DNA from: Oribacterium sp. WCC10
Lineage (GTDB): Bacteria; Bacillota; Clostridia; Lachnospirales; Lachnospiraceae
Assembly (NCBI RefSeq): GCF_900113415.1
Contig: NZ_FOPH01000014.1
Location: forward strand, 1-64,000
Length of the DNA stretch: 64,000 nt
Reading direction: 5' to 3'
A program made the translations under genes and the position numbers. Positions within the stretch are counted from its first letter, which is position 1, and each line of letters begins with the position of its first letter. The notes under the pieces were generated by a model that worked only from the letters and a program-made list of their open reading frames with translations, did no database searches and was not told where the DNA came from. Of this stretch, positions 27,902-54,588 are shown piece by piece.

Positions 27902-30900
27902 ATGATAATCGAGACAGCATTAGTGGAACTAGCAAAAGCAGGGGGAACGGAACTATTTCTATCATCGAGTGAAAGCCTACTGAAGAAGGTTAAAACAGCA
28001 AAAGATATAAAACAATTATTCATTAATACGGGTGAATTTTTTGTTGATTATGAAAATGATGCAGATCAATTATTTGATGATATGGCCAACGTGCTTTCAA
28101 AGGAGAATATGACAAAGCTGGCCAATGATTTGAAGGATGAACCAGGATATAAATTAAAGGATAGGCTACTCAATTCGTTGATGGTAATCATGAAAGAATA
28201 TGAAATCCCGCACGGCATGGCTCTGTCATATGCGAACGCAATTCTATTTGCAATTATGGGGCAACTTCCGGTGGTTGCACCAGACAAATATGATCGTGCA
28301 TATCAAGCTGAATGGAAAGCAGAGCAGGAAGAAAGCTTTAAGGAGTTAGCAGAGAAATTTGAGAGATTAAGAAATGAACTTCAGATATATCAAAGTCGAC
28401 AGTTAGAGATATTATCAGCTGATGCGATTGATTTAGATATCAGGCGTCAAACTACTGATCCTAAGATAGGTTTTGACTTCTTTAATGTGGATGACGATAC
28501 ATTTAAGGAAGCACTTGAAAGTAAAAAAAATGATGAAGTTATAGCGATAAAAGCGCGATGCAAAGAAGAAGCTATCTATTGCACAATAAATGAATTATGG
28601 ATGCAAGGAGAAAATCGTCCAATATTCATAGTGAAGAATGAAGAAGACTGGAAGAGCTTACTTCAGATAAAGGATGCTGGAAATATTTATATACCATGGT
28701 TTTATTCAGATCAAATTGTAGCCATTCCTAATAATACTAATATATTTGTATTTACTGAACGTGTTCCGTCATTTATTAAAGGGGAGATAAATTTACGCCC
28801 ACGTACATACTCTACAATATCAGCATCTTTACAGAGAGCGGGGATGGGAATTAATGAAGCCAATAAATTAGTATCAGAGACTCATGGCCTATTTATACCG
28901 TTAAAGAAGAAATTGTTTAATGGAGCATATTTAAAAGAGCCTAGATGGTTAAATGGATTACATCGCAATATTAAGGAAACAGCATTATTGATAGGTCAAT
29001 GGACAGACTGTGATGGTGACAAGGCAGTTATAGAATTCTTAAGTGGCATTAAGTATCAAGATTTTATTTCAGAGATAAAGGAATATGCTAGGGATGAAGA
29101 TCCATTTATTCATATCGTAGATATCAATTCAACAAAGGAATATTATCTGGCAAGTGCTGAAAATGCATGGGATTATATTGATGTTGATAATGATAGTGAG
29201 ATCTGGAATAAATTTAAGGATGTTCTTCTTGAAGTTATAAATGAGGCAGAAAAACTATTCACATATTCATCTCAAGAAAAGCTTGTTGCACAGTTTAAAG
29301 GAGAAAAATTCTTTTGGTCTGCAGTAATAAGAAAAGGGATGTTACGTAGTCTTATTATGAAGGCTTACTATAAAAAAGATACTAATTGCCAAGTTCAGTT
29401 AGATTCTTTAGTAAGCAAAATTTTGGGATATATCCAAACTTCAGAACAGTGGCATTATATTTCAAACTTTTTTGTTGATTTATGTGAGGTATCACCGAAT
29501 AGTGTGCTTAATAAGCTAGAAGAAGAACAAATTAATCCTACGGGTCTAATGGAGCTGTTTGAAAATCAATCATCTGATTTCTTATTCGGCAGGAATGATT
29601 ATATTGAGATTTTGTGGGGAGTTGAGGAGTTCCTTATACAGAGAGAATACGCATCACGTGCATATTCATGGCTTCTATATCTTGATAATTTATCTTTTGA
29701 ATACAAATCAAATTCACCAAAGGATATCTTTGGGAAATTACTATGCCCGTGGCATAATTTTTCAGCATTTAGCAAAAGTAATGACAAAATAGAGATTGCA
29801 GCTAAGGCATTAGCAAAAGATAAAAATGCATGGGACCATATTTTTGGAGCACTACCAACAGGACATGCAAGTATTTTTGGCGACTTACATGCACCTAAAT
29901 ATAGAAATCATGTGGAAGAAGACACAATAACCAGAAAAGAGATGTATGACACCAATTTGGGATATATAGACCTTCTTTTAAAAGCAACTGATTTTAAACC
30001 CCAAAGGTGGAATGATCTGTTAAATATATATGATGAAGTTGAACCAGATATTCGAAAGAAGATTAAGGAAAAATTATTATTTGAAATTGCACAGATGGAC
30101 GATGATGAAAGGCTGATAATCAAGAATAACATCAGAAGACTGGTTTATAAGCATCGATATTTTGCGTCAGCTGAATGGGCTATGGGCGAAGATTTGATTG
30201 GTGAGATGCTTGATATACTAGATTCAATAAACTTCACCCAACAAGAATATGATTTTGAATATCTATTTAGACCTTCGTATGATGGTATTATTCTGGATCC
30301 AGTTCCTTATGATGTGGATGACAAAAGAGATATAAACGAAAGCAAAACAAAAGATCTCCTTGTCAAAAAAATAAACGAGTTTAAAGAAAATAATTATAGC
30401 CTGGAATTATTATCAAAGCTCTGTGCGAAGGAGAAGTCTTCCTATCTAGGTAGAGTATTGTCGGATTATTGGGCTGATGATTTTTTTGATAAAAATGTAT
30501 TCGCATCACTATATAAGTGCCAGAGTAAACATGAGATGGCAATAGAATACATTGAAGGATTGGCTCGCAGAGGAGTTGATGTATATACTAATGTAAACGA
30601 ATTAAGTGAGTGCGTAGAGTTAGATGATGATTTTAGAATTATACTATTTAGAATCGAAGCTTTATATACAGATAAGAAACCATTAGTCGATAATGCTTCA
30701 GTAGAAATAAAACGTGCATTTTGGAAAGATTTTCGATGGTTTTCATCTAATAATATGGATTGGGCAGTGGTAGAGTGCCAGCAGTATGGAACAGTTAATA
30801 CGTATTTGGACTTATTGTATAGATTCCATGAAAATCGAAATCTTACACCAGAGCAATTGCTTGAAAAAATGCAACGGATTGATGTGATGGAACGAGGAAG

Positions 30901-31624
30901 TAATAATTCGATGACGGATCATTATTTAAAAGAATTACTAAAGCCATTACAGGAGCAATGCATTGAAGATCGAGATAAATGTGCAAAGATAGCGCATATT
31001 GAGATTGCATTCTTTTATCTATTGGACTGGGAAGATATGAAGTGCTTTCAAAAGGAAATAAAGCACGATCCTGAAATGTATGCAGAAATGGTCTCAGTTA
31101 TATTTAGACATGATGGTGATGATCCCGAAGAAAGAAAAACAGAAGAGTTTCGTAATTATGCGAAGGTAATACATAGGTTGTTTGATATGGCAAAGTTTTG
31201 TCCATGTGAAGAAAATGGCACTGTTAGTTATGATGAGATCAAGGTGTGGGTAGATAAACTGATACGAATACTTGATTCGAATCACCAAAAAGAAATGTTT
31301 GGATATGTGTTAGGAAGGTTGTTTGCATATGCACCTAAAGCAGCTGATGGTCATTATCCATGTGAAGCAGTGTGCCAGATTATAGAGGAATATGGGGATG
31401 AATCTTTACTGAGTGAATATAGATGTGAGTTGTTCAATAAAAGAGGAATATTTAGTCCTTCAGCAGGTAGGGCAGAGAAAGACATTGCAGAAGGTTACAA
31501 AGATAATGCAGATTTTTTGAGCATTAAGTACCCGAAGACTGCTGATGTGTTTTTCAAAATGTCACAAAGATATGTATATGATTCTGACCTAGAAAGGCGA
31601 CGTGCCGAAAATGGATATTTTTAG
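27902..31624 (+). CDS. 1240-aa STAND-like helical protein lacking a P-loop
   Basis: ATG 27902 follows CGGAGGAGAG. Residues 1-130 are a helical bundle (ALVELAKAGGTELFLSSSESLLKKV...). Residues about 215-345 (EAIYCTINELWMQGENRPIFIVKNEEDWKSLL ... IPWFYSDQIVAIPNNTNIFVFTERVPS ... RTYSTISASLQRAGMGINEANKLVSETHGLFIPLKKKLF) read like the sensor and winged-helix part of a STAND NTPase, but no GxGKT motif is present. The last 800 residues are helical and repeat-like. STAND proteins often act as phage sensors; without a P-loop this one would have to sense or scaffold without ATP. The function is inferred only. Confidence 0.55.
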   Translation: MIIETALVELAKAGGTELFLSSSESLLKKVKTAKDIKQLFINTGEFFVDYENDADQLFDDMANVLSKENMTKLANDLKDEPGYKLKDRLLNSLMVIMKEYEIPHGMALSYANAILFAIMGQLPVVAPDKYDRAYQAEWKAEQEESFKELAEKFERLRNELQIYQSRQLEILSADAIDLDIRRQTTDPKIGFDFFNVDDDTFKEALESKKNDEVIAIKARCKEEAIYCTINELWMQGENRPIFIVKNEEDWKSLLQIKDAGNIYIPWFYSDQIVAIPNNTNIFVFTERVPSFIKGEINLRPRTYSTISASLQRAGMGINEANKLVSETHGLFIPLKKKLFNGAYLKEPRWLNGLHRNIKETALLIGQWTDCDGDKAVIEFLSGIKYQDFISEIKEYARDEDPFIHIVDINSTKEYYLASAENAWDYIDVDNDSEIWNKFKDVLLEVINEAEKLFTYSSQEKLVAQFKGEKFFWSAVIRKGMLRSLIMKAYYKKDTNCQVQLDSLVSKILGYIQTSEQWHYISNFFVDLCEVSPNSVLNKLEEEQINPTGLMELFENQSSDFLFGRNDYIEILWGVEEFLIQREYASRAYSWLLYLDNLSFEYKSNSPKDIFGKLLCPWHNFSAFSKSNDKIEIAAKALAKDKNAWDHIFGALPTGHASIFGDLHAPKYRNHVEEDTITRKEMYDTNLGYIDLLLKATDFKPQRWNDLLNIYDEVEPDIRKKIKEKLLFEIAQMDDDERLIIKNNIRRLVYKHRYFASAEWAMGEDLIGEMLDILDSINFTQQEYDFEYLFRPSYDGIILDPVPYDVDDKRDINESKTKDLLVKKINEFKENNYSLELLSKLCAKEKSSYLGRVLSDYWADDFFDKNVFASLYKCQSKHEMAIEYIEGLARRGVDVYTNVNELSECVELDDDFRIILFRIEALYTDKKPLVDNASVEIKRAFWKDFRWFSSNNMDWAVVECQQYGTVNTYLDLLYRFHENRNLTPEQLLEKMQRIDVMERGSNNSMTDHYLKELLKPLQEQCIEDRDKCAKIAHIEIAFFYLLDWEDMKCFQKEIKHDPEMYAEMVSVIFRHDGDDPEERKTEEFRNYAKVIHRLFDMAKFCPCEENGTVSYDEIKVWVDKLIRILDSNHQKEMFGYVLGRLFAYAPKAADGHYPCEAVCQIIEEYGDESLLSEYRCELFNKRGIFSPSAGRAEKDIAEGYKDNADFLSIKYPKTADVFFKMSQRYVYDSDLERRRAENGYF

Positions 31625-31743: not shown

Positions 31744-32877
31744 ATGGGTCGGTTGCCATATGATGAAAACCTTAATATTGGTTACCTGAGCAGGCTCTTT
31801 GATGATACGAGCAATTGCTATAAATTTTTCTGGTTTCAAGCTATCCTTGAAAAACTTTCAGAGAATAAGATATCGTTTACCTATAATGAACTGATTAATG
31901 AAATGATTGCAGATGCCTGGTATATGGTAACAGAGTACAGGCTACGTCTTGGACCGTCAGGAGTAACGGATAATCTAGAAGAGGCCGTGAAGTATATCGG
32001 AGAAAAGAATATCTTTCCGGCATCAGAGAAGCGAGACAAAATAATAGAATGGCTTGAAAATACAGATGATAAAAAGCTCATAAGGTACAAGAAGGAACTG
32101 ATCAAAAATGTTCCTTACAGGATACAAGTGCCATTCTTTGATGAAATCAAAATAGATAAGCGCGAGTGGAGCAGACCTGATCAGTTGTCTCAAAAAATTA
32201 ATCAGCAGAGAAGACTCATCTATTATTATGAGGCGTTCTGTCAGTTAGATACTACTATTTGTGTTAATGAAGACTGGGTTTCTTACTTATTGCGCAATAA
32301 GGAAATTCTTTGTGGGTGGTTGCAGTTGAATCTGATACATTATCTGCAACGGCGCAACCCTAGTGTTCCGGGAATCGCAGATAAACTCAGTGCACCTGAG
32401 GCGAGAGATATCGAACGAGTACGCAAATACTGGAAGCTTATCATAGATATACGGCCCGATATACAGGATATTTACGGGCACAAGAATATGGTAGGAGAGA
32501 TCATATCGGTAGACCATTTTGTTCCATGGCAGTATGTGGCTCATGATGAACTATGGAATCTGCATCCTACCACTAAGTCTATAAACAGTAGTAAAAGTAA
32601 TGGACTCCCGGAGTGGGATTTGTATTTTGAACCGCTTTGTAGGATTGAGTATCTGTCATATTCTATGTCAAAAGAAAATGCTAAAGTATCTGAGGCTTTT
32701 GCAAAAGTTTCAAGGTACCATCTGAACAATGATGAAATCAGGAAATCGTTGTATGGTAATGACCTTGCTGAATCAGCTTTTTCAGAACGTTTACACAATA
32801 TTATCCGTCCGATATATGACGATGCGAAAAATAGTGGTTTTAAGGAATGGAGATATGAGGAGGCGCTATGTCAGTGA
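31744..32877 (+). CDS. HNH endonuclease domain protein
   Basis: A 377-aa protein with AAAGGAGACG before its ATG. An HNH nuclease motif is visible at about residues 255-285: SVDHFVPW (Asp-His), HDELWNLHPTTKSINSSKSNGLP (Asn and the second metal-binding segment). The N-terminal 200 residues are helical and unassigned. It overlaps the next gene by 10 bases, so both belong to one operon. Such stand-alone HNH proteins in islands usually cut DNA in defence. Confidence 0.8.
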   Translation: MGRLPYDENLNIGYLSRLFDDTSNCYKFFWFQAILEKLSENKISFTYNELINEMIADAWYMVTEYRLRLGPSGVTDNLEEAVKYIGEKNIFPASEKRDKIIEWLENTDDKKLIRYKKELIKNVPYRIQVPFFDEIKIDKREWSRPDQLSQKINQQRRLIYYYEAFCQLDTTICVNEDWVSYLLRNKEILCGWLQLNLIHYLQRRNPSVPGIADKLSAPEARDIERVRKYWKLIIDIRPDIQDIYGHKNMVGEIISVDHFVPWQYVAHDELWNLHPTTKSINSSKSNGLPEWDLYFEPLCRIEYLSYSMSKENAKVSEAFAKVSRYHLNNDEIRKSLYGNDLAESAFSERLHNIIRPIYDDAKNSGFKEWRYEEALCQ

Positions 32878-33318: not shown

Positions 33319-35058
33319 ATGGGAAATGATGAAATTTACCAACAGGTTATAGATGATTTTTATAGAACCGGATCAGTGAAGAAAACGTCTCAAAATGTTG
33401 GAACAACTTTAGTGCGAGCACAGCGCATCCTGATCACGGAAGGCCTGTGGAGCAGTCCGACTTCTGAGAAGGTGGTTGCCTTATATGCCCGGGGCAAGAC
33501 GGTTCCGCAGATTGCAGAGGAACTTTTCGTTTCGGAGAAGACAGTGCAGGCGTATCTCCCGTATACCAGAACGGACAAGGGATATGGCGGAGATGACCGA
33601 TCGGCGGATGCGGTAAAGAGCGATGATTATAGAAGGCGTATGCAGCGAGCGGCCCAGTCGCAGGTGTCGGAAGATAATATGAAAAAGGAGATAAAGGAGA
33701 TGGGAGAGAAAAAGCCTTTTGAATGGAATGAGGTTTCCAAAAATGAACTGAACACAGCCAGTAAGGCTTATGATAAAAAACTTGAGGAAGAAGAAAGCAA
33801 GAGTGTTAATGGTTCAGAACTTACAACGGAAGAGCTTTACGGTTCTCATATGAGAAAGCACCCCGAGGTTTTGAAGCTGGAGCTTATCCTTGATATTGAT
33901 AGTCTTCGAAAGGAAGACATGGAGGTATTGAAACAGTATGGCAAGGTGGAAAAAGGAATCACGAGAGAAATTCTTGTTCCGGCAGATATTACGCTTCATG
34001 CCTTAAACTATGCAATCTTACGTGCATTTGGATGGCAGAACAGCCACCTGCATCATTTCCGCCTGCCGAAGGAAGTGTTCCAGAAACTTACCGGTGGTAA
34101 GAACAAAGTAGATCAGCATGATTATGTGGAATATGATGGGCTGTATACGAATTGGATGAAGCTTTGCGGTCTGTATTTCCGTTTCCCTTGCGATGATTTT
34201 GAGGATCTGTATTGGGATGATGATTATAAGGAAGGACAGAGCATCAAGACTTGGTTTTCTAAGAAATATACCGGTCCGTACAAATACAAGGGGAAGTGGG
34301 AGCATTTCCATTTTGCAAATCCTGCGGCACAGAGCGTTTTGAAGAAGAATCCCATGATTCGTCAGCAGCTTTCTTTTGCTGAGTGGAGTAAGCTGAAGGA
34401 ATCCGGAAAGGATCCGGATAAGATGCCGGCCAAGATGATTCCGATTGAGGAGGCAACGATTCAGGAATTATCCTACGGATTTGAAGGGGGCATGGATGAA
34501 CTTTTGGAGAGAATTCCTTTGATCGAGCTGATGATTCCGGAGGGAATCAAAGAGGACCGAGACATTAACGATAAGATAGCGTTTCTGCAGAAACGCCAGG
34601 AGAACGAAGAGAAGGACCTTCCGGTTCTTCCTGTTACGGATGAGCTGATCTATGCCTATGATTACGGTGATGGCTGGGAAGTAAAGATTCGTTTGAAGGA
34701 GTGTTACTACACAATCCGTGAAGATAAGTCTGAAAGCTTTACTGAAGTACAGGAGGGTGTACGGTTAAATCTAAAGAAGGACAGATATTTGTCGGAGCAG
34801 ACAGCATTTGACAGGAATAACTTAAAGGTCAGCAAATCATTGGCGCTTAAGATTGCAACGGTGAATTATAAGAGAAGACCCGTATGCCTGAGCCTGGATG
34901 GACTGTCCCTTATGGATGATGTGGGAGGCATTCACGGCTATGTTGATCTCCTTCGTACCATTCACGGTAACGATCCGGAGGAGAAGGAAGACATGAGAGA
35001 GTGGGCTAAATGGATGGGCTGGACCGGCCGGATGAACAAGCCAGAGACACTTTTATAA
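33319..35058 (+). CDS. Plasmid pRiA4b ORF-3-family protein with N-terminal helix-turn-helix
   Basis: A 579-aa protein. The first 85 residues form two helix-turn-helix-like segments (VKKTSQNVGTTLVRAQRIL; KTVPQIAEELFVSEKTVQAYL). Residues about 185-330 (LELILDIDSLRKEDMEVLKQYGKV ... TLHALNYAILRAFGWQNSHLHHFRL) and about 425-460 (LIYAYDYGDGWEVKIRLKE) match the two halves of the pRiA4b ORF-3 (IS1096 TnpR-like) domain, whose role is unknown. GGAGG lies 9 bases before the ATG. It is GC-richer than its neighbours, which hints at separate acquisition. Confidence 0.82.
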   Translation: MGNDEIYQQVIDDFYRTGSVKKTSQNVGTTLVRAQRILITEGLWSSPTSEKVVALYARGKTVPQIAEELFVSEKTVQAYLPYTRTDKGYGGDDRSADAVKSDDYRRRMQRAAQSQVSEDNMKKEIKEMGEKKPFEWNEVSKNELNTASKAYDKKLEEEESKSVNGSELTTEELYGSHMRKHPEVLKLELILDIDSLRKEDMEVLKQYGKVEKGITREILVPADITLHALNYAILRAFGWQNSHLHHFRLPKEVFQKLTGGKNKVDQHDYVEYDGLYTNWMKLCGLYFRFPCDDFEDLYWDDDYKEGQSIKTWFSKKYTGPYKYKGKWEHFHFANPAAQSVLKKNPMIRQQLSFAEWSKLKESGKDPDKMPAKMIPIEEATIQELSYGFEGGMDELLERIPLIELMIPEGIKEDRDINDKIAFLQKRQENEEKDLPVLPVTDELIYAYDYGDGWEVKIRLKECYYTIREDKSESFTEVQEGVRLNLKKDRYLSEQTAFDRNNLKVSKSLALKIATVNYKRRPVCLSLDGLSLMDDVGGIHGYVDLLRTIHGNDPEEKEDMREWAKWMGWTGRMNKPETLL

Positions 35059-35167: not shown

Positions 35168-36010
35168 ATGGGACGAGATGAAAATGTAGCAATATTCCAA
35201 GATACAGAAAAGATGTGCAGAGAGAACGTTCGGCTAAGGGAGTCTATAAAACAGGCATCTGAGAATCAGAAGCTTATTCTGGAGGGAGATTCATTATTTG
35301 CAACTGAGAAAGATAAGTATGATGAATCAGCTAAGATAGTAGTCTCAAAGAAAAAGACATTTGAGGCTGCAAGTGCATACAAAGGTATGAAAGTTGCTGT
35401 TCATAATTTTGCGTCAGCAACAAATCCGGGCGGTGGAGTGGTTAAGGGATCTACAGCCCAGGAAGAATGTCTGTGCAGATGCTCGACTTTGTACAGCATG
35501 CTTAATGTCAAGGAGATGTGGAATGGATTTTATGCTCCTCACAGGAATGCAGCTGATCCAATTCACAATGATGACATTATATATACTCCGGGAGTTGTAG
35601 TGTTTAAAACAGACACAGCAGCTCCTGTTGTCATGCCAGAAACGCAGTGGTATGAAGTTGACGTTATTACCTGTGCTGCTCCTAATCTACGGGACAATCC
35701 AAGTAATCCATATAACAAGAACGATGGAAATAGAAAGGCAAAAATATCAGATAGAGAGCTGCTTGAACTTCATGAAAAGAGGCTCAAGAGAATACTGGAT
35801 GTTGCTGTGGATAATGATGATGAAGTAGTTATATTGGGGGCATTTGGATGTGGAGCATTTCAGAATAAACCAGATATTGTTGCCAAAGCTGCATCAAATG
35901 TGATAGGCGACTTCCTACACCTGTTCAAAAATATAGAGTTCGCCGTATATTGCAGTCCAAGAGATAGCCGAAATTATGACGTGTTTAATAGGTTATTAGC
36001 TAACAGATAG
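35168..36010 (+). CDS. TIGR02452-family (bacterial-type PARG, macrodomain-like) protein
   Basis: A 280-aa protein with the signature VHNFASATNPGGGVVKGSTAQEECLCRCSTLY at about residues 77-108: the GGG...QEE loop holds the catalytic glutamates of poly(ADP-ribose) glycohydrolases. The later VDVITCAAPNLR and VVILGAFGCGAFQNKP segments are also typical of the family. It should remove ADP-ribose from proteins or nucleic acids. In an island with nucleases it may counter ADP-ribosylating phage or toxin activity. Confidence 0.9.
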   Translation: MGRDENVAIFQDTEKMCRENVRLRESIKQASENQKLILEGDSLFATEKDKYDESAKIVVSKKKTFEAASAYKGMKVAVHNFASATNPGGGVVKGSTAQEECLCRCSTLYSMLNVKEMWNGFYAPHRNAADPIHNDDIIYTPGVVVFKTDTAAPVVMPETQWYEVDVITCAAPNLRDNPSNPYNKNDGNRKAKISDRELLELHEKRLKRILDVAVDNDDEVVILGAFGCGAFQNKPDIVAKAASNVIGDFLHLFKNIEFAVYCSPRDSRNYDVFNRLLANR

Positions 36011-36440: not shown

Positions 36441-36570
36441 CACCATTATCTTACATTAAAAACATATAAAAATGCATTAAAACCTTTAAAAACCATTAAA
36501 ATACATTAAAAACCATTAAATATACAATAAAGTCATTAAAAGCCTTTAAAAAGTGATATAATACCATTGA
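36441..36570 (+). repeat. Array of about 12 decamers at 10-bp spacing (consensus AACCATTAAA)
   Basis: Between 36441 and 36570 the word CATTAAA, or a one- or two-base variant, starts at 36454, 36463, 36475, 36484, 36494, 36504, 36514, 36525, 36534 and 36544, with looser copies at each edge. The spacing is 9-12 bases, mostly 10, which puts the A-tracts on one face of the helix. The array runs into the promoter: TATAAT at 36557-36562 stands 25 bases before the ATPase ATG and the repeats occupy the -35 and upstream positions. It may be curved DNA acting as an activator element or a multi-site array for a DNA-binding protein of the operon. Confidence 0.85.
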
Positions 36571-36587
36571 CAGGAGGTATCACTTTC

Positions 36588-37754
36588 ATGAACAAATCAG
36601 CTGAAATATTTAAGCCGGGGGCATTACCTGTGACTACTTATATTTCCAGAGAAGCTGCGCTAGGTTTTACTTATGAGGAGAGACTTGAGCAGGCGTTAAA
36701 TATGTCTGGGTATATAACACTTATTTCCGGTCCATCCAAAATAGGAAAAACGGTACTGTGTGAAAGAGTTGTGGGAATCGACAACCTTGTAGAAGTATTG
36801 GGTTCAGACTTTTTGAATAAAGAAAATGTATGGAAGACAATCGGTGCAAAGGCAGGGATGCCTTTATCGGGAATGGTTACTACAGGAAATACTGATAATT
36901 CTATATCTGAGGAGTACATTGTAACACGAGAAAATGTTATAGCTTATTATCAGGAGCATGAACTTGTGCTGCTTATTGATGATTTTCATTACGCAAGCGA
37001 AGAAATACAGCGATTTTTATCGCAACAGCTGAAAGATGCTATCAGGAAAGGACTAAAGGTAATAATATCTTCGCTTCCTCACAGATGTGACGATGCAATC
37101 AGAACCAATCCTGATCTGCAGGGACGTATAAGTATAATCGATATTAAGCCCTGGTCTAAGGATGAACTGAGACAGATTCCAAGAAAAGGATTTGAGCAGC
37201 TTGGAATATATGTTGATGATAAGTATATTGAAAGCTTAGTCGGCGAGAGCCTTGCATCACCTCAATTGATGCAATTGTTATGTCTGAATCTGTGTGTGCT
37301 TATAAAGGCAGATTCTGGTAATGCAGTTGATGTTAGCGAAGAGATTATAAAAAAAGCTTATAAGTTTTCAACTCTGAACCTGGACTTTAAAAATGTCACT
37401 GCCGTTATCAGTAATGGAAAGACAAAACGTGGTAGAGAACGAAAAAAATATTGTACAAGCAAGGGAGAGTTGGATTTATATTCGCTTATACTTGAAGCTA
37501 TTGCTCAGGATCCGCCAATAGAGGAGATTGGATTCGATGACCTGTTGACGAGAATCAATAAAACAATTGTTGAAGATGATAAGGTTACACCTAAATCATT
37601 AAAAGAATATCTGGGCAACATACAGGAAGTCCTAAACGATAAAAACAGAACTTTTGAGGTTCTTGAGTGGAGAGATAACGTACTGTATGTTATAGAAGCA
37701 TTATTCTTATTCTATTTACGTTGGGGGCGCAATGAACAGGGAACAGAGTATTGA
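36588..37754 (+). CDS. P-loop ATPase of the decamer-array nuclease operon
   Basis: A 388-aa protein. ATG 36588 follows AGGAGG by 10 bases; a TTG at 36567 is rejected. Walker A is ISGPSKIGKT (GPSKIGKT at residues 48-55) and Walker B is LVLLIDDFHYAS (about 125-136), followed by an AAA/STAND-like lid region with LPHRCDDAIRTNPDLQGRISII as sensor. The C-terminal 120 residues are a helical, winged-helix-like domain. It overlaps the nuclease gene by 23 bases. It probably controls the nuclease or loads it on DNA. The exact family was not named. Confidence 0.78.
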   Translation: MNKSAEIFKPGALPVTTYISREAALGFTYEERLEQALNMSGYITLISGPSKIGKTVLCERVVGIDNLVEVLGSDFLNKENVWKTIGAKAGMPLSGMVTTGNTDNSISEEYIVTRENVIAYYQEHELVLLIDDFHYASEEIQRFLSQQLKDAIRKGLKVIISSLPHRCDDAIRTNPDLQGRISIIDIKPWSKDELRQIPRKGFEQLGIYVDDKYIESLVGESLASPQLMQLLCLNLCVLIKADSGNAVDVSEEIIKKAYKFSTLNLDFKNVTAVISNGKTKRGRERKKYCTSKGELDLYSLILEAIAQDPPIEEIGFDDLLTRINKTIVEDDKVTPKSLKEYLGNIQEVLNDKNRTFEVLEWRDNVLYVIEALFLFYLRWGRNEQGTEY

Positions 37755-38454
37755 GTTTATTCAGGCTATAGAAGACACTAAAGCGTTAGAAAGAGCAATT
37801 TTAGATATCATAGATGAATTGAAATCAGAGGGCTCCAAAGAAATCGCAGATGGCTTAGAGCAGCTTATACCGATATCAAATAATAGATTTTCTGTAATTG
37901 GCCAGAAGGAACTATTACAGGAATCCAAAAGAAGAGCTATCAGCATACTTAAGAGTGAACCCCAATTTAATCACGTCAGCGAGAAAGAAGCATGTTGCAT
38001 CGTTGAGAGAGTATTAGGAAATGTGCAGCTTTATCTGCAGGATATGTTTAAGCGACAGCCACATACTAAATGTACTGACAGTATTTTGAGTATGCAAAAG
38101 TGTTTTGATATTGGTAATGAATATGATCTGCAACATATAGTATATGCTCTGCTAAGAGCAGTGTTTCCGCTTGCCAGAATAGAAGAGTATCAGGATGCAG
38201 GAGCGTGTGCTGTTAGAAAAGACATATGTATTGATGAGTTTGACATTGCGATAGAGTTAAAATGTACAAGAGATAGCCTTTCCGCTAAAAAGCTTTCAGA
38301 GGAAGTAGCATCTGACATTGTTCACTATGATAATAAAAACATTTTCCTTTTAATATATGATAAAGCCAGAATAATAGACAATATCGATGTATTTAGGGAT
38401 ACCTATGAGAAAACTGACATGAGTAAAAACGTGAAGGTGTTTGTGATGCTATAG
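37732..38454 (+). CDS. PD-(D/E)XK nuclease, DpnII/MboI-like C-terminal domain
   Basis: A 240-aa protein whose ATG lies inside the ATPase gene, after GGGGGCGCA. The C-terminal half reads EYDLQHIVYALLRAVFPLARIEEY ... IDEFDIAIELKCTRDSLSAKKLSEEVASDIVHYDNKNIFLLIYD, which fits the REase_DpnII-MboI domain: D in DEFD and the ExK of IELK form the metal site (about residues 168-180), followed by the helix and strand of the PD-(D/E)XK fold. The N-terminal 110 residues are helical and could contact the ATPase. No methyltransferase is adjacent, so it is not a standard restriction system. Confidence 0.82.
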   Translation: MNREQSIEFIQAIEDTKALERAILDIIDELKSEGSKEIADGLEQLIPISNNRFSVIGQKELLQESKRRAISILKSEPQFNHVSEKEACCIVERVLGNVQLYLQDMFKRQPHTKCTDSILSMQKCFDIGNEYDLQHIVYALLRAVFPLARIEEYQDAGACAVRKDICIDEFDIAIELKCTRDSLSAKKLSEEVASDIVHYDNKNIFLLIYDKARIIDNIDVFRDTYEKTDMSKNVKVFVML

Positions 38455-38657
38455 AAACCGATAAACATTCCTCGGCATCTTTTTTGGCCAAGGGAATTGC
38501 ACAAATAGCCAGTATGGATGTTTTTAAATGCAAAAAATAATAGTTAGCTGTCTGGCTGAGATGGATGAAATATAGTCGTAATACTGAGCATCAGCTCATG
38601 AGTGCGCTGCACTTGTGGCTGGTGCTTTTTCTTTTGTTCGAAAATCTCGAACATAAA

Positions 38658-38679
38658 GTTCACAGTGACAGGCACCTAT
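38658..38679 (-). repeat. Half copy of the dispersed palindromic repeat (right arm)
   Basis: GTTCACAGTGACAGGCACC plus TAT matches the right arm of the palindrome at 43572-43593 with one change and is the inverse of the half copy at 27792-27813. It lies just after a small GTTCGA/TCGAAC hairpin. The segment 38455-38650 otherwise shows no gene. Confidence 0.7.
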
Positions 38680-41951: not shown

Positions 41952-43370
41952 ATGTTTTATATTCTGGAAAATGGTATCAGAGTAAAAAAGTGGGCGAGCG
42001 GATGGGCCTGTTGCGGCACGGAAGAGGCGAAAAAACCATTTCCACTGAGGCCTAAGGATTATAAACTTTTGAAAAGCTGTGATGGCATGACTGACCTTGC
42101 CGATAGTGATGCGCTGCGCGCATGGGAAGCCATGGGTGTGATCCGAAAATGTGAAAAAGGCGAAGCTCAGCTTTCGGAAGGACAGATTCAGGAATATCCA
42201 AATAAGCTGAACTGTGTCCTCGATTGGACAATCACCGATCGCTGTAACTACAACTGTCTGCATTGTTTCCATGCAGCGGACAATACTACACTGAAAGATG
42301 AGTTTTCCCGCGAAGAGGCCTTTCATCTTCTGAAGGAAGCACAAGCCTGCGGAATTACCCATGTTGAGCTCACAGGCGGAGAACCGACCATGTATCCGTA
42401 TTTCCGCGATGTTGTTCAGGAGGTTCATGACCTTGGCATGAAGCTGGGATGTGTTGTAACCAATGGCTCGCTGATGACCGAGGAGCTTGCAGCCTTCATC
42501 AAGAGGCTTCACCCGGATTGTTTGATTGCGATTTCCTTTGACGGCATTGGAATCCATGACTGGATGCGTCAGCACAAAGGAAGTGAGGAGAGTGCCAAGA
42601 ATGCCATCCGGATCTGCGTTGCTGCCGGTCTTAAGGTTGTCAGCAACATGAATGTAAACAGAAAGAATCGTGATGTGCTCTTTGATTCGGTCAAAATGCT
42701 TTCGGAAATGGGTGTTGACCATCTCCGTATCATAAAGACGACAGAAGTGCCCAGATGGGCTCTTAACTCCGAAGACTTTTCTATGACACCGGAGGAATAC
42801 TATGATTATTCCATAGAGTTTGCAAAACAATACCGCGAAAGCGGTCTGACTATCCCTGTAAGGCTTTGGCAGGTTCTGGCTCTGAATGGACGTGACAAAA
42901 TCTACCATATCGTTCCTGTTAAGGCATCCGGCAGCACTTTCTGCGAATATGAAATGATATGCCCTGACATGCTTAAAAAGCTTTCCGTCCAGCCTAGCGG
43001 TGAAATAATTCCATGTGCCCCGATGGCCGGAATACTCACCTCAAGAAACATCCACCTTGGCAATGTGAAGCATGACGGTCTGGTTAAGCTGCTTTCTGAA
43101 GGTGCGCTGTATGAACAGGTAACCTACACGGTTAAGGATAAACAAAAGGCCAATTCCAAATGTGCCGGCTGTAAGTATTTCAAATACTGTCAGGGCGGCT
43201 GTCCTGCCGTGGGATTACTTTTCAATGGCAGTCCTCTTGGTACCGACGATTATAAATGTATGTTCTTTGAAAAAGGGTATTACAAAAAGATCAGTGAGGC
43301 CATGGAAGGATGGAAGAATCTGCTTCCACTGACGGAAGCTGAGGAGCGTCTGCTCTCAGGAAAATCGTGA
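41952..43370 (+). CDS. Radical SAM/SPASM maturase-like enzyme
   Basis: A 472-aa protein; AGGAGG precedes the ATG. The radical SAM motif CNYNCLHC (C98, C102, C105) opens the barrel with ELTGGEPTMYPYF and ISFDGIGIHDWMR behind it. The C-terminal SPASM domain supplies Cys for extra clusters: FCEYEMIC, IPCAPMAG, CAGCKYFKYCQGGCP and YKCMFF (from about residue 330 on). The first about 85 residues with WACC and EYPNKLNCVL resemble a peptide-recognition (RRE/PqqD-like) region. Relatives form thioether or other crosslinks in ribosomal peptides. The divergent Nif11-like gene is the likely substrate. Confidence 0.85.
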   Translation: MFYILENGIRVKKWASGWACCGTEEAKKPFPLRPKDYKLLKSCDGMTDLADSDALRAWEAMGVIRKCEKGEAQLSEGQIQEYPNKLNCVLDWTITDRCNYNCLHCFHAADNTTLKDEFSREEAFHLLKEAQACGITHVELTGGEPTMYPYFRDVVQEVHDLGMKLGCVVTNGSLMTEELAAFIKRLHPDCLIAISFDGIGIHDWMRQHKGSEESAKNAIRICVAAGLKVVSNMNVNRKNRDVLFDSVKMLSEMGVDHLRIIKTTEVPRWALNSEDFSMTPEEYYDYSIEFAKQYRESGLTIPVRLWQVLALNGRDKIYHIVPVKASGSTFCEYEMICPDMLKKLSVQPSGEIIPCAPMAGILTSRNIHLGNVKHDGLVKLLSEGALYEQVTYTVKDKQKANSKCAGCKYFKYCQGGCPAVGLLFNGSPLGTDDYKCMFFEKGYYKKISEAMEGWKNLLPLTEAEERLLSGKS

Positions 43371-43885: not shown

Positions 43886-44422
43886 ATGCCTACAGGTTAC
43901 AATTTGAATCCGAATATTCAAATGAAAATAGAGGATGAAAGAGCCGGGAGGCTCGACTACGTTTATGAAACGCTTCTATCTATAAATGAGTGTCAGGCAA
44001 GGATAGGAAGGAAAGTGACGGGAAAGCTTTCAGAGTACGAAGTGGAGACTAACGATGGGGTCTTATACATACTATTTGCCGATAATACAGAAAATACAGG
44101 CGGACTATATGTTGCACATCCACAGAAATACGCTGTCAGATTTGAAAGCATAAGCGATAAAACCTTGATAAGGGTCAGATACATCTGGGAAAACGATACG
44201 ATAAGTGTACAATACCTTTTAAGAGAGGATATTGACGCATTTTTCGAGACTTTGTTTGATGCATCTGTATCTGAGGCTAAAAAAATGATTTGGGTGGATT
44301 CTGCAGAAGAGTTTGTTCAAAAAGATCCATTGGGAATACATGGCACAAAAAAATTTTGGATAATAAGCACAGCTTTTGTTGTGATATGGATTATGTGTAT
44401 TCTATTTTCGAGTGTGCATTAA
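43886..44422 (+). CDS. Tail-anchored hypothetical protein (178 aa)
   Basis: ATG 43886 follows GGAGGAATTA and is chosen over TTG 43874. The soluble part is strand-rich (RIGRKVTGKLSEYEVETNDGVLYILFADN), and residues about 157-176 (FWIISTAFVVIWIMCILF) form one C-terminal membrane helix, so the protein is probably anchored with its bulk in the cytoplasm. It is 17 bases upstream of the WYL regulator start. No family is recognised. Confidence 0.6.
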   Translation: MPTGYNLNPNIQMKIEDERAGRLDYVYETLLSINECQARIGRKVTGKLSEYEVETNDGVLYILFADNTENTGGLYVAHPQKYAVRFESISDKTLIRVRYIWENDTISVQYLLREDIDAFFETLFDASVSEAKKMIWVDSAEEFVQKDPLGIHGTKKFWIISTAFVVIWIMCILFSSVH

Positions 44423-44439
44423 CAGGGGGGAATAAAAAG

Positions 44440-45441
44440 ATGTCCAGAGGCACCAACCAGAAGTTTAAGTTCACCTATCTCATGAAGGTAATGCTGGAAA
44501 AGACTGATGATGATCATGCACTTACCATGTCTCAGATCATGGAAGAACTTGAAAAGTACGATGTGACAGCGGAACGTAAAAGCATATATCAGGACTTTGC
44601 GGATATGGAGAAGTTCGGGATAGACATCATCAAGGAGCAGGCAGGACGGGACACATTGTATCATGTAGCTTCCAGAGAGTTTGAACTTGCAGAGGTAAAG
44701 CTTCTCGTTGATGCCATACAGTCTTCAAAGTTCATCACTCAGAGTAAATCCAGGGATCTGATCAGCAAGCTAAAGACATTTGTCAGTGAATATCAGGGAA
44801 GCACACTCCAGCGTCAGGTTTTTATCGATAATCGTGTGAAGTCCATGAACGAAAGTGTTTTCTACAATGTTGATGAAGTCTATAATGCCATCAATGAGAA
44901 TAAGAAGATCCGCTTCAAGTATTATAAATGGGATATCAATAAAAAACTTGTTCCCCGCCGAAACGGAGACTGGTTTATATTAAGCCCATGGGCGCTTACC
45001 TGGATGGATGAGAACTACTATATGGTTGCATTCGACGAGTGGGATGGCAAGATAAAGAGCTACCGTATAGATAAGATGATGCGAATATCAATCACAGATG
45101 AAGCCCGCGTCGGTAAGAAAGAATTCAAAGAATACGATATGGCGAAACTATCGAAATCAACATTCAGCATGTATGGCGGACCTAAGAAAAGAGTGACCAT
45201 ACAGCTTGATAACAGTATGTGTGGGGTCTTTCTGGATCGATTCGGAAAAGATGATATATCATTCCGCCCTGTTGATGATACCCACAGCGAGTTCTCGGTA
45301 GAAGTGAATGTGAGCCCACAGTTCTTTGCCTGGATCTTTGGCCTTGGAACTAAAGTTAAGGTTGTGGGACCGGAGGATGTTGTTAAAGAGCTGAAGGACT
45401 ACGGGAAGGCATTTCTTGAAAATTATAAGGAGATAAATTGA
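44440..45441 (+). CDS. WYL-domain transcriptional regulator (paralogue of 18703)
   Basis: A 333-aa protein starting at ATG 44440 after AGGGGGG; the frame extends upstream into the previous gene but that part is not used. It has a winged-helix N-terminus (LTMSQIMEELEKYDVTAERKSIYQDFADMEKFGIDI), a WYL domain (IRFKYYKWDINKKLVPRRNGDWFILSPWALTWMDENYYMVAFD) and a C-terminal WCX region, and aligns along its whole length with the protein at 18703. Likely regulates nearby accessory genes. Confidence 0.85.
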   Translation: MSRGTNQKFKFTYLMKVMLEKTDDDHALTMSQIMEELEKYDVTAERKSIYQDFADMEKFGIDIIKEQAGRDTLYHVASREFELAEVKLLVDAIQSSKFITQSKSRDLISKLKTFVSEYQGSTLQRQVFIDNRVKSMNESVFYNVDEVYNAINENKKIRFKYYKWDINKKLVPRRNGDWFILSPWALTWMDENYYMVAFDEWDGKIKSYRIDKMMRISITDEARVGKKEFKEYDMAKLSKSTFSMYGGPKKRVTIQLDNSMCGVFLDRFGKDDISFRPVDDTHSEFSVEVNVSPQFFAWIFGLGTKVKVVGPEDVVKELKDYGKAFLENYKEIN

Positions 45442-49510: not shown

Positions 49511-50824
49511 ATGAGAAGGACTAACATAAAATGTTTAATCGTAATTGCCGTGTGCGCCATGGTTATACTTTCGGGATGTGAATCAAAGGATCAGATAATG
49601 GACGGTGACGGTATGTTTCAGACATTTTCCTATACGATTATAACACAGGATGATGCAAAACGTATGATGGAGCAGGATGACGGTCATGTGATTGTTGATG
49701 TCAGAAGACAGGATGAGTATGTTGAAGGGCATATTCCCGGAGCCATACTTATACCTAATGAAACTATAGAAAACGATCCGCCTGAAGAATTACCTGATTA
49801 TGAACAAATCATTCTTGTTTACTGTCGCAGCGGACGGATGAGCAAAGAAGCTTCTCAGAAACTCGCTGACATGGGATATAAGAATGTTTATGAGTTTGGG
49901 GGCATTATAGACTGGACAGGTGAAGTTGTGAAAAGTGAAGTAACAGAAGAAACATCTGAGGAAACAACAGAGGAAAAAACTGAGAACAAGGCTGAGAAAA
50001 CAACAGAGGAAAAGGCTGATCCGGTCAATAAAGAGGTAACTCTCCGATTTGATTCATTTGACGGAGGTGGACCGGAATATAATGTGATCATTAAGGACGA
50101 AAGCATTGTATCTTATACCGCTATGAGGGAGTATGCCAAAGAAGATCATGATATGATGACTGGTGCCGGATATGATGAGGTGTTCACGTTCACGGGAATA
50201 AAACCAGGTGAAACAGATATGCTTATAGAGGCGCGTTCACCGATAGCTGATAATCTTGATATGAACTATAAGGTAGTCGTCAGTGAAGACCTGAGTGTAA
50301 AAATAGAAGAGGTTTCAGTAAATGAGGTAGTCGAATCGGTTGATGAAGAAGTCGACCCTTACTGGGGAGTATTGCTTAGTTACAAAGAGGCCCAGGATGC
50401 AGGATATACAGAAGAAGAGTTAAATGAGAGAGGATATAAAACAGAACTCATTCAGCATGGATGGCCGAAAACAACAAATAATAATGAGGTCAGGTATCAC
50501 TATTATGACATAAACAACGATGACTGGATTGATCTTATAATCACATATTATGGGCAGATTGTGGATATATATTCACATGATGGAGATGCCGTATACTCTT
50601 ATGGTACACCATATAGAGGAATTGCCGAGCTTTATCCTGATGGCTCCCTTTCAGAGGTGGTCACCATGGGGGTTAAGGGATCTAGTACAAGGTGGTATAG
50701 ATATGATGAAAAGTCAGGGAAATTCCTTAAGGCAGATGGAGAACTACATCCAAAAGAATCGCCAGTTATCATGCCAGAGGGCAGAAAGATATCCGATGTG
50801 GGAGCGTCCAGGCTGTCAGACTGA
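49511..50824 (+). CDS. Rhodanese-domain lipoprotein
   Basis: A 437-aa protein with a lipoprotein signal (VILSGC, Cys23). A rhodanese domain follows (VIVDVRRQDEYVEGHIPGAILIPNETI ... LVYCRSGRMSKEASQKLADMGYKNVYEFGG, about residues 52-132) with catalytic Cys in YCRSGR. An acidic repeat linker (about 138-170, TEETSEETTEEKTENK) leads to a chagasin/I42-like domain (GAGYDEVFTFTGIKPGETDMLIEARSP) and a final domain of unknown kind. It should sit on the outer face of the membrane and handle sulfur transfer or act as a sensor. Its ATG overlaps the TGA of a gene fragment (about 49440-49514). Confidence 0.85.
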   Translation: MRRTNIKCLIVIAVCAMVILSGCESKDQIMDGDGMFQTFSYTIITQDDAKRMMEQDDGHVIVDVRRQDEYVEGHIPGAILIPNETIENDPPEELPDYEQIILVYCRSGRMSKEASQKLADMGYKNVYEFGGIIDWTGEVVKSEVTEETSEETTEEKTENKAEKTTEEKADPVNKEVTLRFDSFDGGGPEYNVIIKDESIVSYTAMREYAKEDHDMMTGAGYDEVFTFTGIKPGETDMLIEARSPIADNLDMNYKVVVSEDLSVKIEEVSVNEVVESVDEEVDPYWGVLLSYKEAQDAGYTEEELNERGYKTELIQHGWPKTTNNNEVRYHYYDINNDDWIDLIITYYGQIVDIYSHDGDAVYSYGTPYRGIAELYPDGSLSEVVTMGVKGSSTRWYRYDEKSGKFLKADGELHPKESPVIMPEGRKISDVGASRLSD

Positions 50825-54228: not shown

Positions 54229-54588
54229 AGCAAATCAGGAGATAAGATAGTTAAGAAGATAAAGCATGTTAGATGGAATACTATAAAACAGGACATTGAG
54301 AATCCAAAACAGGACATTAATAAAGTAAAACAGGACATTGAGGAAGTAAAACAGGATATAGGGTTACATATTGAATTGTCTGCCAAAACAAAGCAGCATA
54401 TTGAAGTACTATTTACTGAATTTGGTTATGAAAAATACTTTGGAAGGATGGATGTTATGGAAATATTGGGCATCACAGCCTCTCCTGCATCTACATTAAT
54501 TAAAAAAATGTTGGATATGGAACTGATTTATGGTATTAAGGGCAAAGGTAAGGGTAAATATTTATTTAAAAAGACTAAGAATAGCTGA
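54229..54588 (+). pseudogene. C-terminal fragment: KQDI repeats plus winged helix
   Basis: A frame without a good start encodes three to four repeats of about seven residues (VKQDIEN, PKQDINK, VKQDIEE, VKQDIG) and then a winged-helix region (HIEVLFTEFGYEKYFGRMDVMEILGITASPASTLIKKMLDMELIYGIKGKGKGKYLFKK). It resembles the C-terminal DNA-binding domain of Fic-type or AlbA_2/RecG-like proteins. The upstream part is missing, so it is probably a remnant. TTG 54376 could give a short protein. Confidence 0.5.

What the first reader, a model, noticed from the sequence alone, without database searches (positions are those of the whole stretch)
36441..38454. Helically phased decamer array in front of an ATPase plus DpnII/MboI-type nuclease operon
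About 12 copies of a CATTAAA-type word sit at almost exactly 10-bp spacing (starts 36454, 36463, 36475, 36484, 36494, 36504, 36514, 36525, 36534, 36544) and run into the promoter of a two-gene operon: a P-loop ATPase (GPSKIGKT, IDDF) overlapping by 23 bp a PD-(D/E)XK nuclease (DEFD...ELK). There is no methyltransferase, so self-protection must work differently. The array could be the ATPase's own multi-site operator, a curved-DNA activator, or the self DNA on which the complex is parked until a phage disturbs it. I know of no named defence system with this layout.
Basis: partly seen in the sequence, partly recalled or inferred. Interest (0 to 1): 0.85.

Follow-up and report, generated by a model that had tools for sequence, protein, structure and literature searches.

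The report
Ten-base repeat array controlling ATPase-nuclease operon
A small mobile bacterial gene pair, an ATPase plus a DNA-cutting enzyme that looks like an anti-virus system, carries in front of its start site a row of short repeats spaced one DNA turn apart, and many distant relatives of the pair carry the same kind of row, so the row is probably a built-in control switch.

Summary
The array is real: 10 units (not 12) of a CATTAAA-type word at 36454-36552, mean spacing 10.0 bp. No dinucleotide shuffle of 1000 and none of 195 other sampled upstream regions of the genome has a comparable chain. It runs into an extended -10 box without a clear -35, before an ATPase and an overlapping nuclease gene.

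The new result is conservation. Among 22 non-identical ATPase-nuclease pairs (other ATPases 40-63% identical to the window's), a significant about-10-bp array was found in 12 by a word-chain test, 18 by a spectral test and 11 by a word-independent fit; 0 of 7 relatives without the nuclease pass any. Words differ between lineages, but the array keeps helical register with the -10 box (p = 2e-5 over 22 loci; median p = 0.03 with one locus per ATPase cluster).

The ATPase has an AAA+ fold with a predicted winged helix and matches only an unnamed PADLOC candidate (PDC-S59); the nuclease is DpnII-MboI/EcbAgaN-like.

Best reading: a defence-type operon whose array is a cooperative operator, probably bound by the ATPase (inferred). 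Main rival: an RNA polymerase alpha-subunit (UP-like) array. Comparable arrays precede at least two unrelated genes in the genomes examined.

The parts
36454..36552 (+). array of 10 TWAAA-core units, about 10-bp period, consensus AwmCATTAAA
36554..36562 (+). extended -10 promoter element TGATATAAT (TATAAT at 36557-36562); no good -35; array in helical register with it
   Evidence: consensus match only, no transcript data
36550..36586 (.). inverted repeat AAAGTGATA/TATCACTTT flanking the -10 and Shine-Dalgarno region; not seen in the homologous promoters I printed (read by eye)
   Evidence: I14
36572..36577 (+). AGGAGG ribosome-binding site for the ATG at 36588
   Evidence: sequence
36588..37754 (+). 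AAA+ ATPase, 388 aa, predicted C-terminal winged helix (Cdc6/Orc1-like layout); PADLOC PDC-S59-like (alternative TTG start 36567)
37732..38454 (+). helical N-terminal region plus DpnII-MboI PD-(D/E)XK nuclease, 240 aa, related to EcbAgaN
38606..38625 (+). terminator-like hairpin; in five near-identical copies the block shared with the window ends at 38595-38661

Best explanation
This is a horizontally moving two-gene sensor-effector operon, most likely anti-phage. An AAA+ ATPase with a Cdc6/Orc1-like layout (AAA+ then winged helix) controls a DpnII-MboI/AgaN-type nuclease that has no methylase beside it. The 10-bp array is a cis-regulatory operator belonging to this operon. Protein subunits bind one unit per helical turn, side by side on one face of the DNA that is fixed relative to the extended -10 box, and so set transcription of the operon, most likely by cooperative self-repression by the ATPase (alone or with the nuclease). 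Shown here: array, promoter layout, recurrence before homologous pairs, register with the -10, absence before nuclease-less relatives, predicted folds. Inferred: that the ATPase is the binder, that binding represses, that the system defends against phage.
For: About-10-bp arrays before homologous pairs: TWAAA-chain test p<=0.005 in 12 of 22 pairs and 0 of 7 nuclease-less relatives; spectral test p<=0.05 in 18 of 22 and 0 of 7; word-independent unit fit p<=0.05 in 11 of 22 and 0 of 7. Spectral scores of pairs exceed 195 own-genome upstream regions (MWU p = 2e-11; orphans p = 0.98; 13 of 22 pairs lie above the controls' 95th percentile). Array phase relative to the -10 is shared (22 loci, R = 0.71, p = 1.8e-5); 98 control promoters R = 0.11, p = 0.29. 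In the window the last units cover the -35 region, and TGnTATAAT is present in 7 of 22, a layout suited to occlusion. Winged-helix pattern in the model (pLDDT 87), with Cdc6 the top fold match. Unit gains and losses between near-identical copies are multiples of 10 bp (L005 -20, L007 +20, L012 +10). The generic 5-unit pattern lies at the ATPase promoter in 6 of 10 pair-bearing genomes and nowhere else in 5 of those 6. Precedent: RptR represses a defence island by binding three 9-bp direct repeats over its own promoter (passages of PMC12255303).
Against: No binding, expression or phage data. Winged helices of Orc-like ATPases do not always bind DNA (recalled). Orphan relatives without the array align over the whole ATPase (L045), so the ATPase alone does not predict an array. 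The orphans are also the most distant relatives (22-36% identity against 40-63% for pairs), so the link to the nuclease may be a clade effect. Eleven of 22 pairs miss p<=0.05 in the unit fit; Paenibacillus pairs L019, L021 and L043 show no clear array there, and L019 fails all three tests. The 22 loci fall into 10 clusters at 60% ATPase identity; with one locus per cluster the register is weaker (median R 0.58, median p 0.034, p<=0.05 in 76% of 1000 draws). Over the ten genomes the generic pattern has about as many hits (41) as its reversed control (38). Comparable arrays precede unrelated genes in the own genome (C42) and in G752 (C76). Most of the 50 Foldseek rows shown are other AAA+ proteins (RuvBL, RFC), with TM-scores (query-normalised) of 0.5 or less.
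Confidence: 0.42

Rival explanations
1. UP-element-like array: the repeats are minor-groove docking sites for the RNA polymerase alpha C-terminal domain, compensating for the missing -35 and giving strong constitutive expression; unit number acts as a rheostat. No operon-encoded protein binds.
For: AT-rich A-tract units in register with an extended -10 and no clear -35; unit number varies between copies; a similar array lies directly before an unrelated chemotaxis-receptor gene in G752. Stimulation by phased upstream A-tracts through alpha is recalled knowledge (Aiyar, Ross and Gourse); for H. pylori sabA I saw only listings and the abstract start of PMC4081817.
Against: In the window the last unit sits at about -28 to -18 (assuming a start about 7 nt after the -10), inside the core promoter, and the array reaches about -115; L047 has 13 units. 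UP elements usually lie at -40 to -60 (recalled). All ten window units keep a TpA step (many units of L020 and L055 do not). 195 other sampled upstream regions of the genome do not use such arrays. Nuclease-less relatives do without.
Confidence: 0.3
2. The array is bound by another host factor (nucleoid protein, xenogeneic silencer or unlinked regulator) that keeps a toxic operon silent until phage takeover removes it.
For: AT-rich, mobile, potentially toxic cargo; fits any DNA-binding protein with a 10-bp footprint.
Against: The array travels with the operon between genera, so the factor would have to be general; yet 195 other sampled upstream regions lack such arrays.
Confidence: 0.13
3. Intrinsic DNA curvature is the conserved function (curved-DNA activator).
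For: Predicted curvature exceeds shuffles (p<=0.05) in 7 of 15 loci run, including the window.
Against: Modest (contour/end ratio 1.20 against 1.08 for shuffles in the window; 2.3 for perfect A6 tracts); 8 of 15 loci not significant; 7 of the 22 pairs were not run. The TpA in the words weakens A-tract bending (recalled; the T4A4 control agrees). The model's parameters are recalled, and its first run failed the sanity check and was corrected.
Confidence: 0.05
4. Self-DNA parking site: the ATPase oligomerises on the array and holds the nuclease idle; phage processes strip it off and release active nuclease.
For: Array is part of the moving unit; filament-driven activation is known for the DREN nuclease of SPARDA (passages of PMC12205087), and the nuclease here matches the PDB entry EcbAgaN.
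Against: A parking site needs no register with the -10 box, yet register is shared. No data on binding.
Confidence: 0.06
5. Neutral tandem-repeat drift without function.
For: Copy number varies; a 10-bp repeat also occurs between other genes (G752 C85).
Against: Different words but the same period, position and register before diverged homologues; 5 of 6 substitutions among 5 close copies fall in spacers (small numbers).
Confidence: 0.04

Closest known systems
PADLOC candidate PDC-S59
   Same: ATPase hits the profile at E 8.2e-22; 12 of 12 alignment members hit it
   Different: PADLOC entry is an unnamed candidate ('S' = single gene is my reading); here the ATPase is followed by a nuclease and preceded by an array. 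The nuclease-less Niallia plasmid relative L045 fits the model better (E 1.4e-31)
SPARDA (short Argonaute + DREN nuclease; AgaN)
   Same: nuclease profile matches EcbAgaN (E 1.8e-9) and the PADLOC Aga_Helical-REase models; that AgaN is the SPARDA nuclease subunit is recalled
   Different: no Argonaute or APAZ partner found beside it; an AAA+ ATPase stands in the sensor place
Type II DpnII/MboI restriction-modification
   Same: PF18742 nuclease domain (E 3.5e-28)
   Different: no methylase among 8 local proteins scanned; partner is an ATPase; 4 of 10 pair-bearing draft genomes show no D12 methylase (other methylase families not searched)
Cdc6/Orc1 initiators and Pyrococcus ATPase PAB2304
   Same: AAA+ plus winged-helix layout (Cdc6 1fnn is rank 1, PAB2304 2qen rank 19)
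   Different: 12-14% identity; query-normalised TM-scores 0.37-0.50; linked to a nuclease, not to an origin
RptR-regulated defence island
   Same: promoter-proximal direct repeats about one turn apart in a defence operon
   Different: three 9-bp palindrome-bearing repeats bound by a dedicated 79-aa repressor

Membership tests
PADLOC PDC-S59 | significant match to the candidate's profile | tested here: met
   12 of 12 members; best 9.6e-28
PADLOC PDC-S59 | single-gene system (my reading of the name) | tested here: not met
   nuclease homology follows the ATPase in the window and the other 21 pair loci (L050 half only, L017 broken, L019 displaced by 2 kb), though 7 orphans exist
Type II R-M (DpnII/MboI) | DpnII-MboI nuclease domain | tested here: met
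   E 3.5e-28
Type II R-M (DpnII/MboI) | cognate methyltransferase at the locus | tested here: not met
   none in 8 scanned local proteins; the genome's D12 methylase is on another contig
Type II R-M (DpnII/MboI) | GATC-specific cleavage | not testable with these tools
   needs enzyme assay
SPARDA | AgaN/DREN-type nuclease domain | tested here: met
   E 1.8e-9, profile 136-236 on chain 257-365; single-sequence search only E 0.51; Foldseek found nothing below E 0.08
SPARDA | short Argonaute plus APAZ | tested here: not met
   no such Pfam match among the 8 local proteins
Cdc6/Orc1-type ATPase | AAA+ domain followed by winged helix | tested here: met
   (predicted model; winged helix is my reading of its secondary structure)
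Cdc6/Orc1-type ATPase | sequence family membership | tested here: not met
   ORC-CDC6-like 12.2 bits against cut-off 27
Autoregulated multi-site operator | repeat array at own promoter, recurring with the operon | tested here: met
   (not in every pair)
Autoregulated multi-site operator | operon product binds the array | not testable with these tools
   needs EMSA or ChIP
UP element | A-tract sites at about -40 to -60 contacting alpha-CTD | tested here: inconclusive
   array covers that zone but also extends far to both sides; binding not testable

The most novel reading that the evidence does not exclude
The array is a DNA-encoded safety catch: an Orc-like ATPase assembles cooperatively on its own promoter repeats, which at once represses the operon and holds the AgaN-type nuclease in an inactive assembly. 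When phage replication or phage proteins strip or titrate the ATPase from the array, the nuclease is freed and the operon is switched on. A guide-free, methylation-free way of telling self from phage.
Probability: 0.1. Interest if true: 0.92.

Novelty: new variant of a known kind. Interest (0 to 1): 0.6.

Why it matters
How nuclease systems without a methylase are kept off in healthy cells is open. Here a recurring promoter element, tied by helical register to the -10 box and found with the nuclease-bearing branch, gives a concrete DNA handle. Binding, repression and release can be tested with one protein and one 100-bp fragment. It would also give a function to an uncharacterised defence candidate family (PDC-S59-like) and show an AgaN-type nuclease beside an ATPase instead of an Argonaute.

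Tried and rejected
Pure curvature: first run failed the known A4T4/T4A4 sanity check; sign corrected; modest and not general. RNA role: the array region folds no better than shuffles (z = -0.20) and no Rfam family reached its cut-off in the window. Split DpnII R-M: disfavoured. Conserved inverted repeat over the -10: not seen in the homologous promoters I printed (read by eye). Foldseek of the nuclease model: no match below E 0.08, so its assignment rests on sequence. Viral collections added only the Clostridioides prophage/phage copy.

Test mended: the unit fit seeded real sequences more densely than shuffles, which favoured the real ones (13 of 22 pairs at p<=0.05). With equal seeding and 300 shuffles it gives 11 of 22; that number is used. 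For this, and for the G752 C76 array read late, I lowered the best reading from 0.45 to 0.42 and raised the UP-element rival from 0.27 to 0.30.

Rows dropped before the 22/7 counts: near-identical copies L005-L012; duplicates L042/L061/L062 (as L014), L056 (as L020), L059 (as L044); fragments L023, L024, L037, L046, L057 (with L034, L038); and the 22%-identity hit L041/L060. Of these, L024, L046 and L057 were scored and showed no array. For L017, L057 and L065 the start of the match stood in for the start codon.

Paper searches showed no account of this pair with an array in the rows listed. Several lists were capped (10 of 36,558, 12 of 1,267, 12 of 17); preprints are not held. I opened passages of only two papers.

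Full report
OBSERVATION. The array is as described, with small corrections. The region 36454-36552 holds 10 units (11 with a degenerate first one) with spacing 9-11 and mean 10.0. Six units are exact CATTAAA and two are CTTTAAA. None of 1000 dinucleotide shuffles reached the chain of 10, and the word-independent unit fit gives z = 11.6. The array runs into TGATATAAT (extended -10), followed by AGGAGG and the ATG at 36588. No clear -35 is present. The ATPase (36588-37754) and nuclease (37732-38454) overlap by 23 bp.

THE PROTEINS. The ATPase matches AAA_22 (E 4.9e-06, just over its cut-off) and ATPase_2 and nSTAND1 below theirs. It also matches the PADLOC candidate PDC-S59 (12 of 12 aligned members). 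An AlphaFold model from 12 aligned rows, three of them near-identical (pLDDT 86.9), shows AAA+ followed by a pattern I read as a winged helix (helices 297-307, 316-326, 335-350; strands 359-362, 365-368). Foldseek ranks a Cdc6 first; PAB2304 is rank 19, and most of the 50 rows shown are RuvBL and RFC proteins, with query-normalised TM-scores of 0.5 or less. The nuclease is DpnII-MboI (E 3.5e-28), with invariant NEYD, E175 and K177 in 9 rows. Its profile finds EcbAgaN in the PDB (E 1.8e-9); the single sequence only reaches E 0.51. The DREN nuclease of SPARDA is switched on by filament-driven tetramerisation (passages of PMC12205087). That AgaN is the corresponding SPARDA subunit is recalled, not from a call.

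DISTRIBUTION AND MOBILITY. Eight Oribacterium, Butyrivibrio and other Lachnospiraceae records carry the ATPase at 99-100% identity. In six of these eight the block shared with the window covers at least 36466-38595; the other two (L011, L012) break off inside the nuclease gene. Flanks vary: L005 shares 7.9 kb at 99.3%, L006, L008, L009 and L010 keep whole or partial PARG-gene pieces with deletions between, and L011 shares nothing to the left of 36436. So the array moves with the operon. More distant relatives are rare: 10 of 397 family genomes, 4 of 398 phylum genomes (one of them only 22% identical) and 3 of 391 class genomes, each count including the own genome; 9 plasmid records and 1 phage record.

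RECURRENCE OF THE ARRAY. I assembled 22 non-identical loci in which nuclease homology follows the ATPase and 7 full-length relatives without it. Of the 22, L050 has only the N-terminal half of the nuclease, L017 is broken, and in L019 the nuclease hit lies 2 kb further on. The other ATPases are 40-63% identical to the window's (L017 not measured); the orphans 22-36%. Three tests were run. TWAAA chain: 12 of 22 pairs p<=0.005, 0 of 7 orphans. Spectral A/W periodicity against shuffles: 18 of 22 p<=0.05, 0 of 7. Word-independent unit fit: 11 of 22 p<=0.05, 0 of 7 (which replaces the less even). L019 fails all three; the other 21 pass at least one at p<=0.05 uncorrected. Pair scores exceed 195 own-genome upstream regions (MWU 2e-11; 13 of 22 above their 95th percentile), orphans do not (p = 0.98). 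Against 93 upstream regions from the same loci, 5 of 22 pairs exceed every control and 11 lie within the top 5%. Words differ by lineage: CATTAAA (window), ACAATAAAAA/CCATTAAAAA (L047), GGATAAAA-like (L049, L052), GGTATAAAA-like (L048, L017), AAAAAAGGTA (L020). The 22 loci form 10 clusters at 60% ATPase identity, so they are not independent.

SPECIFICITY. In 464 kb of the own genome (window included), 195 other upstream regions have chains of at most 2 units, and no chain of 5 or more exists elsewhere on either strand. A 4-unit pattern in the whole genome gives 23 hits, 13 of them in this array, against 15 for the reversed pattern. The best other place is C42, where 10.5 copies of ATTATGAAGA (period 10) and a short TWAAA array precede a tetrapyrrole methylase gene. 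The window-type word triple is found in 4 of 299 family genomes: the own one and G131, both at the ATPase, and one 2-mismatch place each in G231 and G261, not inspected. In ten pair-bearing genomes a 5-unit pattern gives 41 hits; 22 lie at the ATPase promoter, in 6 of the 10 genomes, and in 5 of those 6 there is no other hit. The reversed control gives 38 hits, so background is high in AT-rich genomes. Three other places were inspected. G176 C5 leads into no gene in its orientation (ORFs of 150 aa or more listed). G752 C85 lies about 260 bp before a sulfate-permease gene with a hairpin between. G752 C76 lies directly before a chemotaxis-receptor gene, so TWAAA arrays are not exclusive to this operon.

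REGISTER WITH THE PROMOTER. The phase of A's relative to the -10 box is shared across the 22 pairs (R = 0.71, p = 1.8e-5, mean 275 degrees). With one locus per cluster it is weaker (median R 0.58, median p 0.034, p<=0.05 in 76% of draws). It is not shared across 98 own-genome control promoters (R = 0.11, p = 0.29); the 17 controls with perfect TATAAT show some coherence at another phase (R = 0.51, p = 0.013, 26 degrees). The -10 was picked automatically; 16 of 22 are perfect TATAAT and 7 of 22 TGnTATAAT.

MICRO-EVOLUTION. Among nine close copies, unit differences are -20 (L005), +20 (L007) and +10 bp (L012); all keep phase. L010 has lost the first units to a junction with the PARG gene. L011, whose nuclease is reduced to a stub, is the only copy with a 1-bp indel in the array. 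Among the five copies of equal layout that I compared, 5 of 6 substitutions lie in spacers. These numbers are small.

MECHANISM. Recurrence, position over the -35 region and register point to a regulator that binds one unit per turn next to RNA polymerase. The operon's own DNA-binding candidate is the ATPase with its predicted winged helix, so cooperative autoregulation is my first choice (0.42). Alpha-CTD docking is the main rival (0.30). Curvature is modest and significant in 7 of 15 loci run. RNA structure in the array is not above chance. RptR gives a precedent for direct-repeat operators in defence islands (passages of PMC12255303). Defence itself is inferred from the nuclease type, the PADLOC candidate match and mobility; no phage test exists.

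NOT A DpnII R-M SYSTEM. No methylase was found among 8 local proteins scanned. The only PF18742 protein of the genome is this one, and a D12 methylase is on contig C47. Yet 4 of 10 pair-bearing draft genomes show no D12 methylase; other methylase families were not searched.

VERDICT. Real, recurrent before diverged homologues, and not described in the paper listings I saw (capped lists, no preprints). New variant of a known kind: a nuclease-effector defence-type operon with an unusual promoter array.

Noticed in passing
own genome G000:C42 2717-2900 (L079/L123): 10.5 copies of a 10-bp unit ATTATGAAGA followed by a short TWAAA array, upstream of a tetrapyrrole methylase gene: a second, different phased array in the same genome.
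   Followed up: partly
G752:C76 216865-216919 (L122 2366-2420, minus strand): About 6-unit TWAAA array directly before a methyl-accepting chemotaxis protein gene: phased arrays also occur before unrelated genes.
   Followed up: partly
35168-36007: PARG-type (TIGR02452) gene next to the operon; in L010 a junction fuses its interior to the truncated array.
   Followed up: partly
27902-31621: 1240-aa ORF without any Pfam, NCBIfam or PADLOC family at significant E-value, near an HNH protein (31744-32874) and a PRiA4_ORF3 protein (33319-35055).
   Followed up: no
41952-43367 and 44290-45438: Radical-SAM-like protein hitting the prokaryotic viperin models (E 4.6e-23) and a WYL-domain regulator (E 1.1e-26) downstream; the viperin hit may only reflect the radical-SAM fold.
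   Followed up: no
L022, L044, L045, L066-L069: Nuclease-less relatives of the ATPase, six of these seven on plasmids of Selenomonas, Niallia and Actinobacteria, without an array.
   Followed up: partly
L005 1270-9185: Oribacterium sp. P6A1 contig shares 7.9 kb with the window at 99.3% identity: very recent transfer or cross-contamination.
   Followed up: no
G000:C47 3199-3942: Dam-type (D12) adenine methylase elsewhere in the genome; its neighbourhood was fetched but not read.
   Followed up: no
54284-54356 and 49949-50019: Further tandem repeats in the window (21-bp x 3.5; 12-bp x 5.3 with an overlapping 24-bp row); not examined.
   Followed up: no
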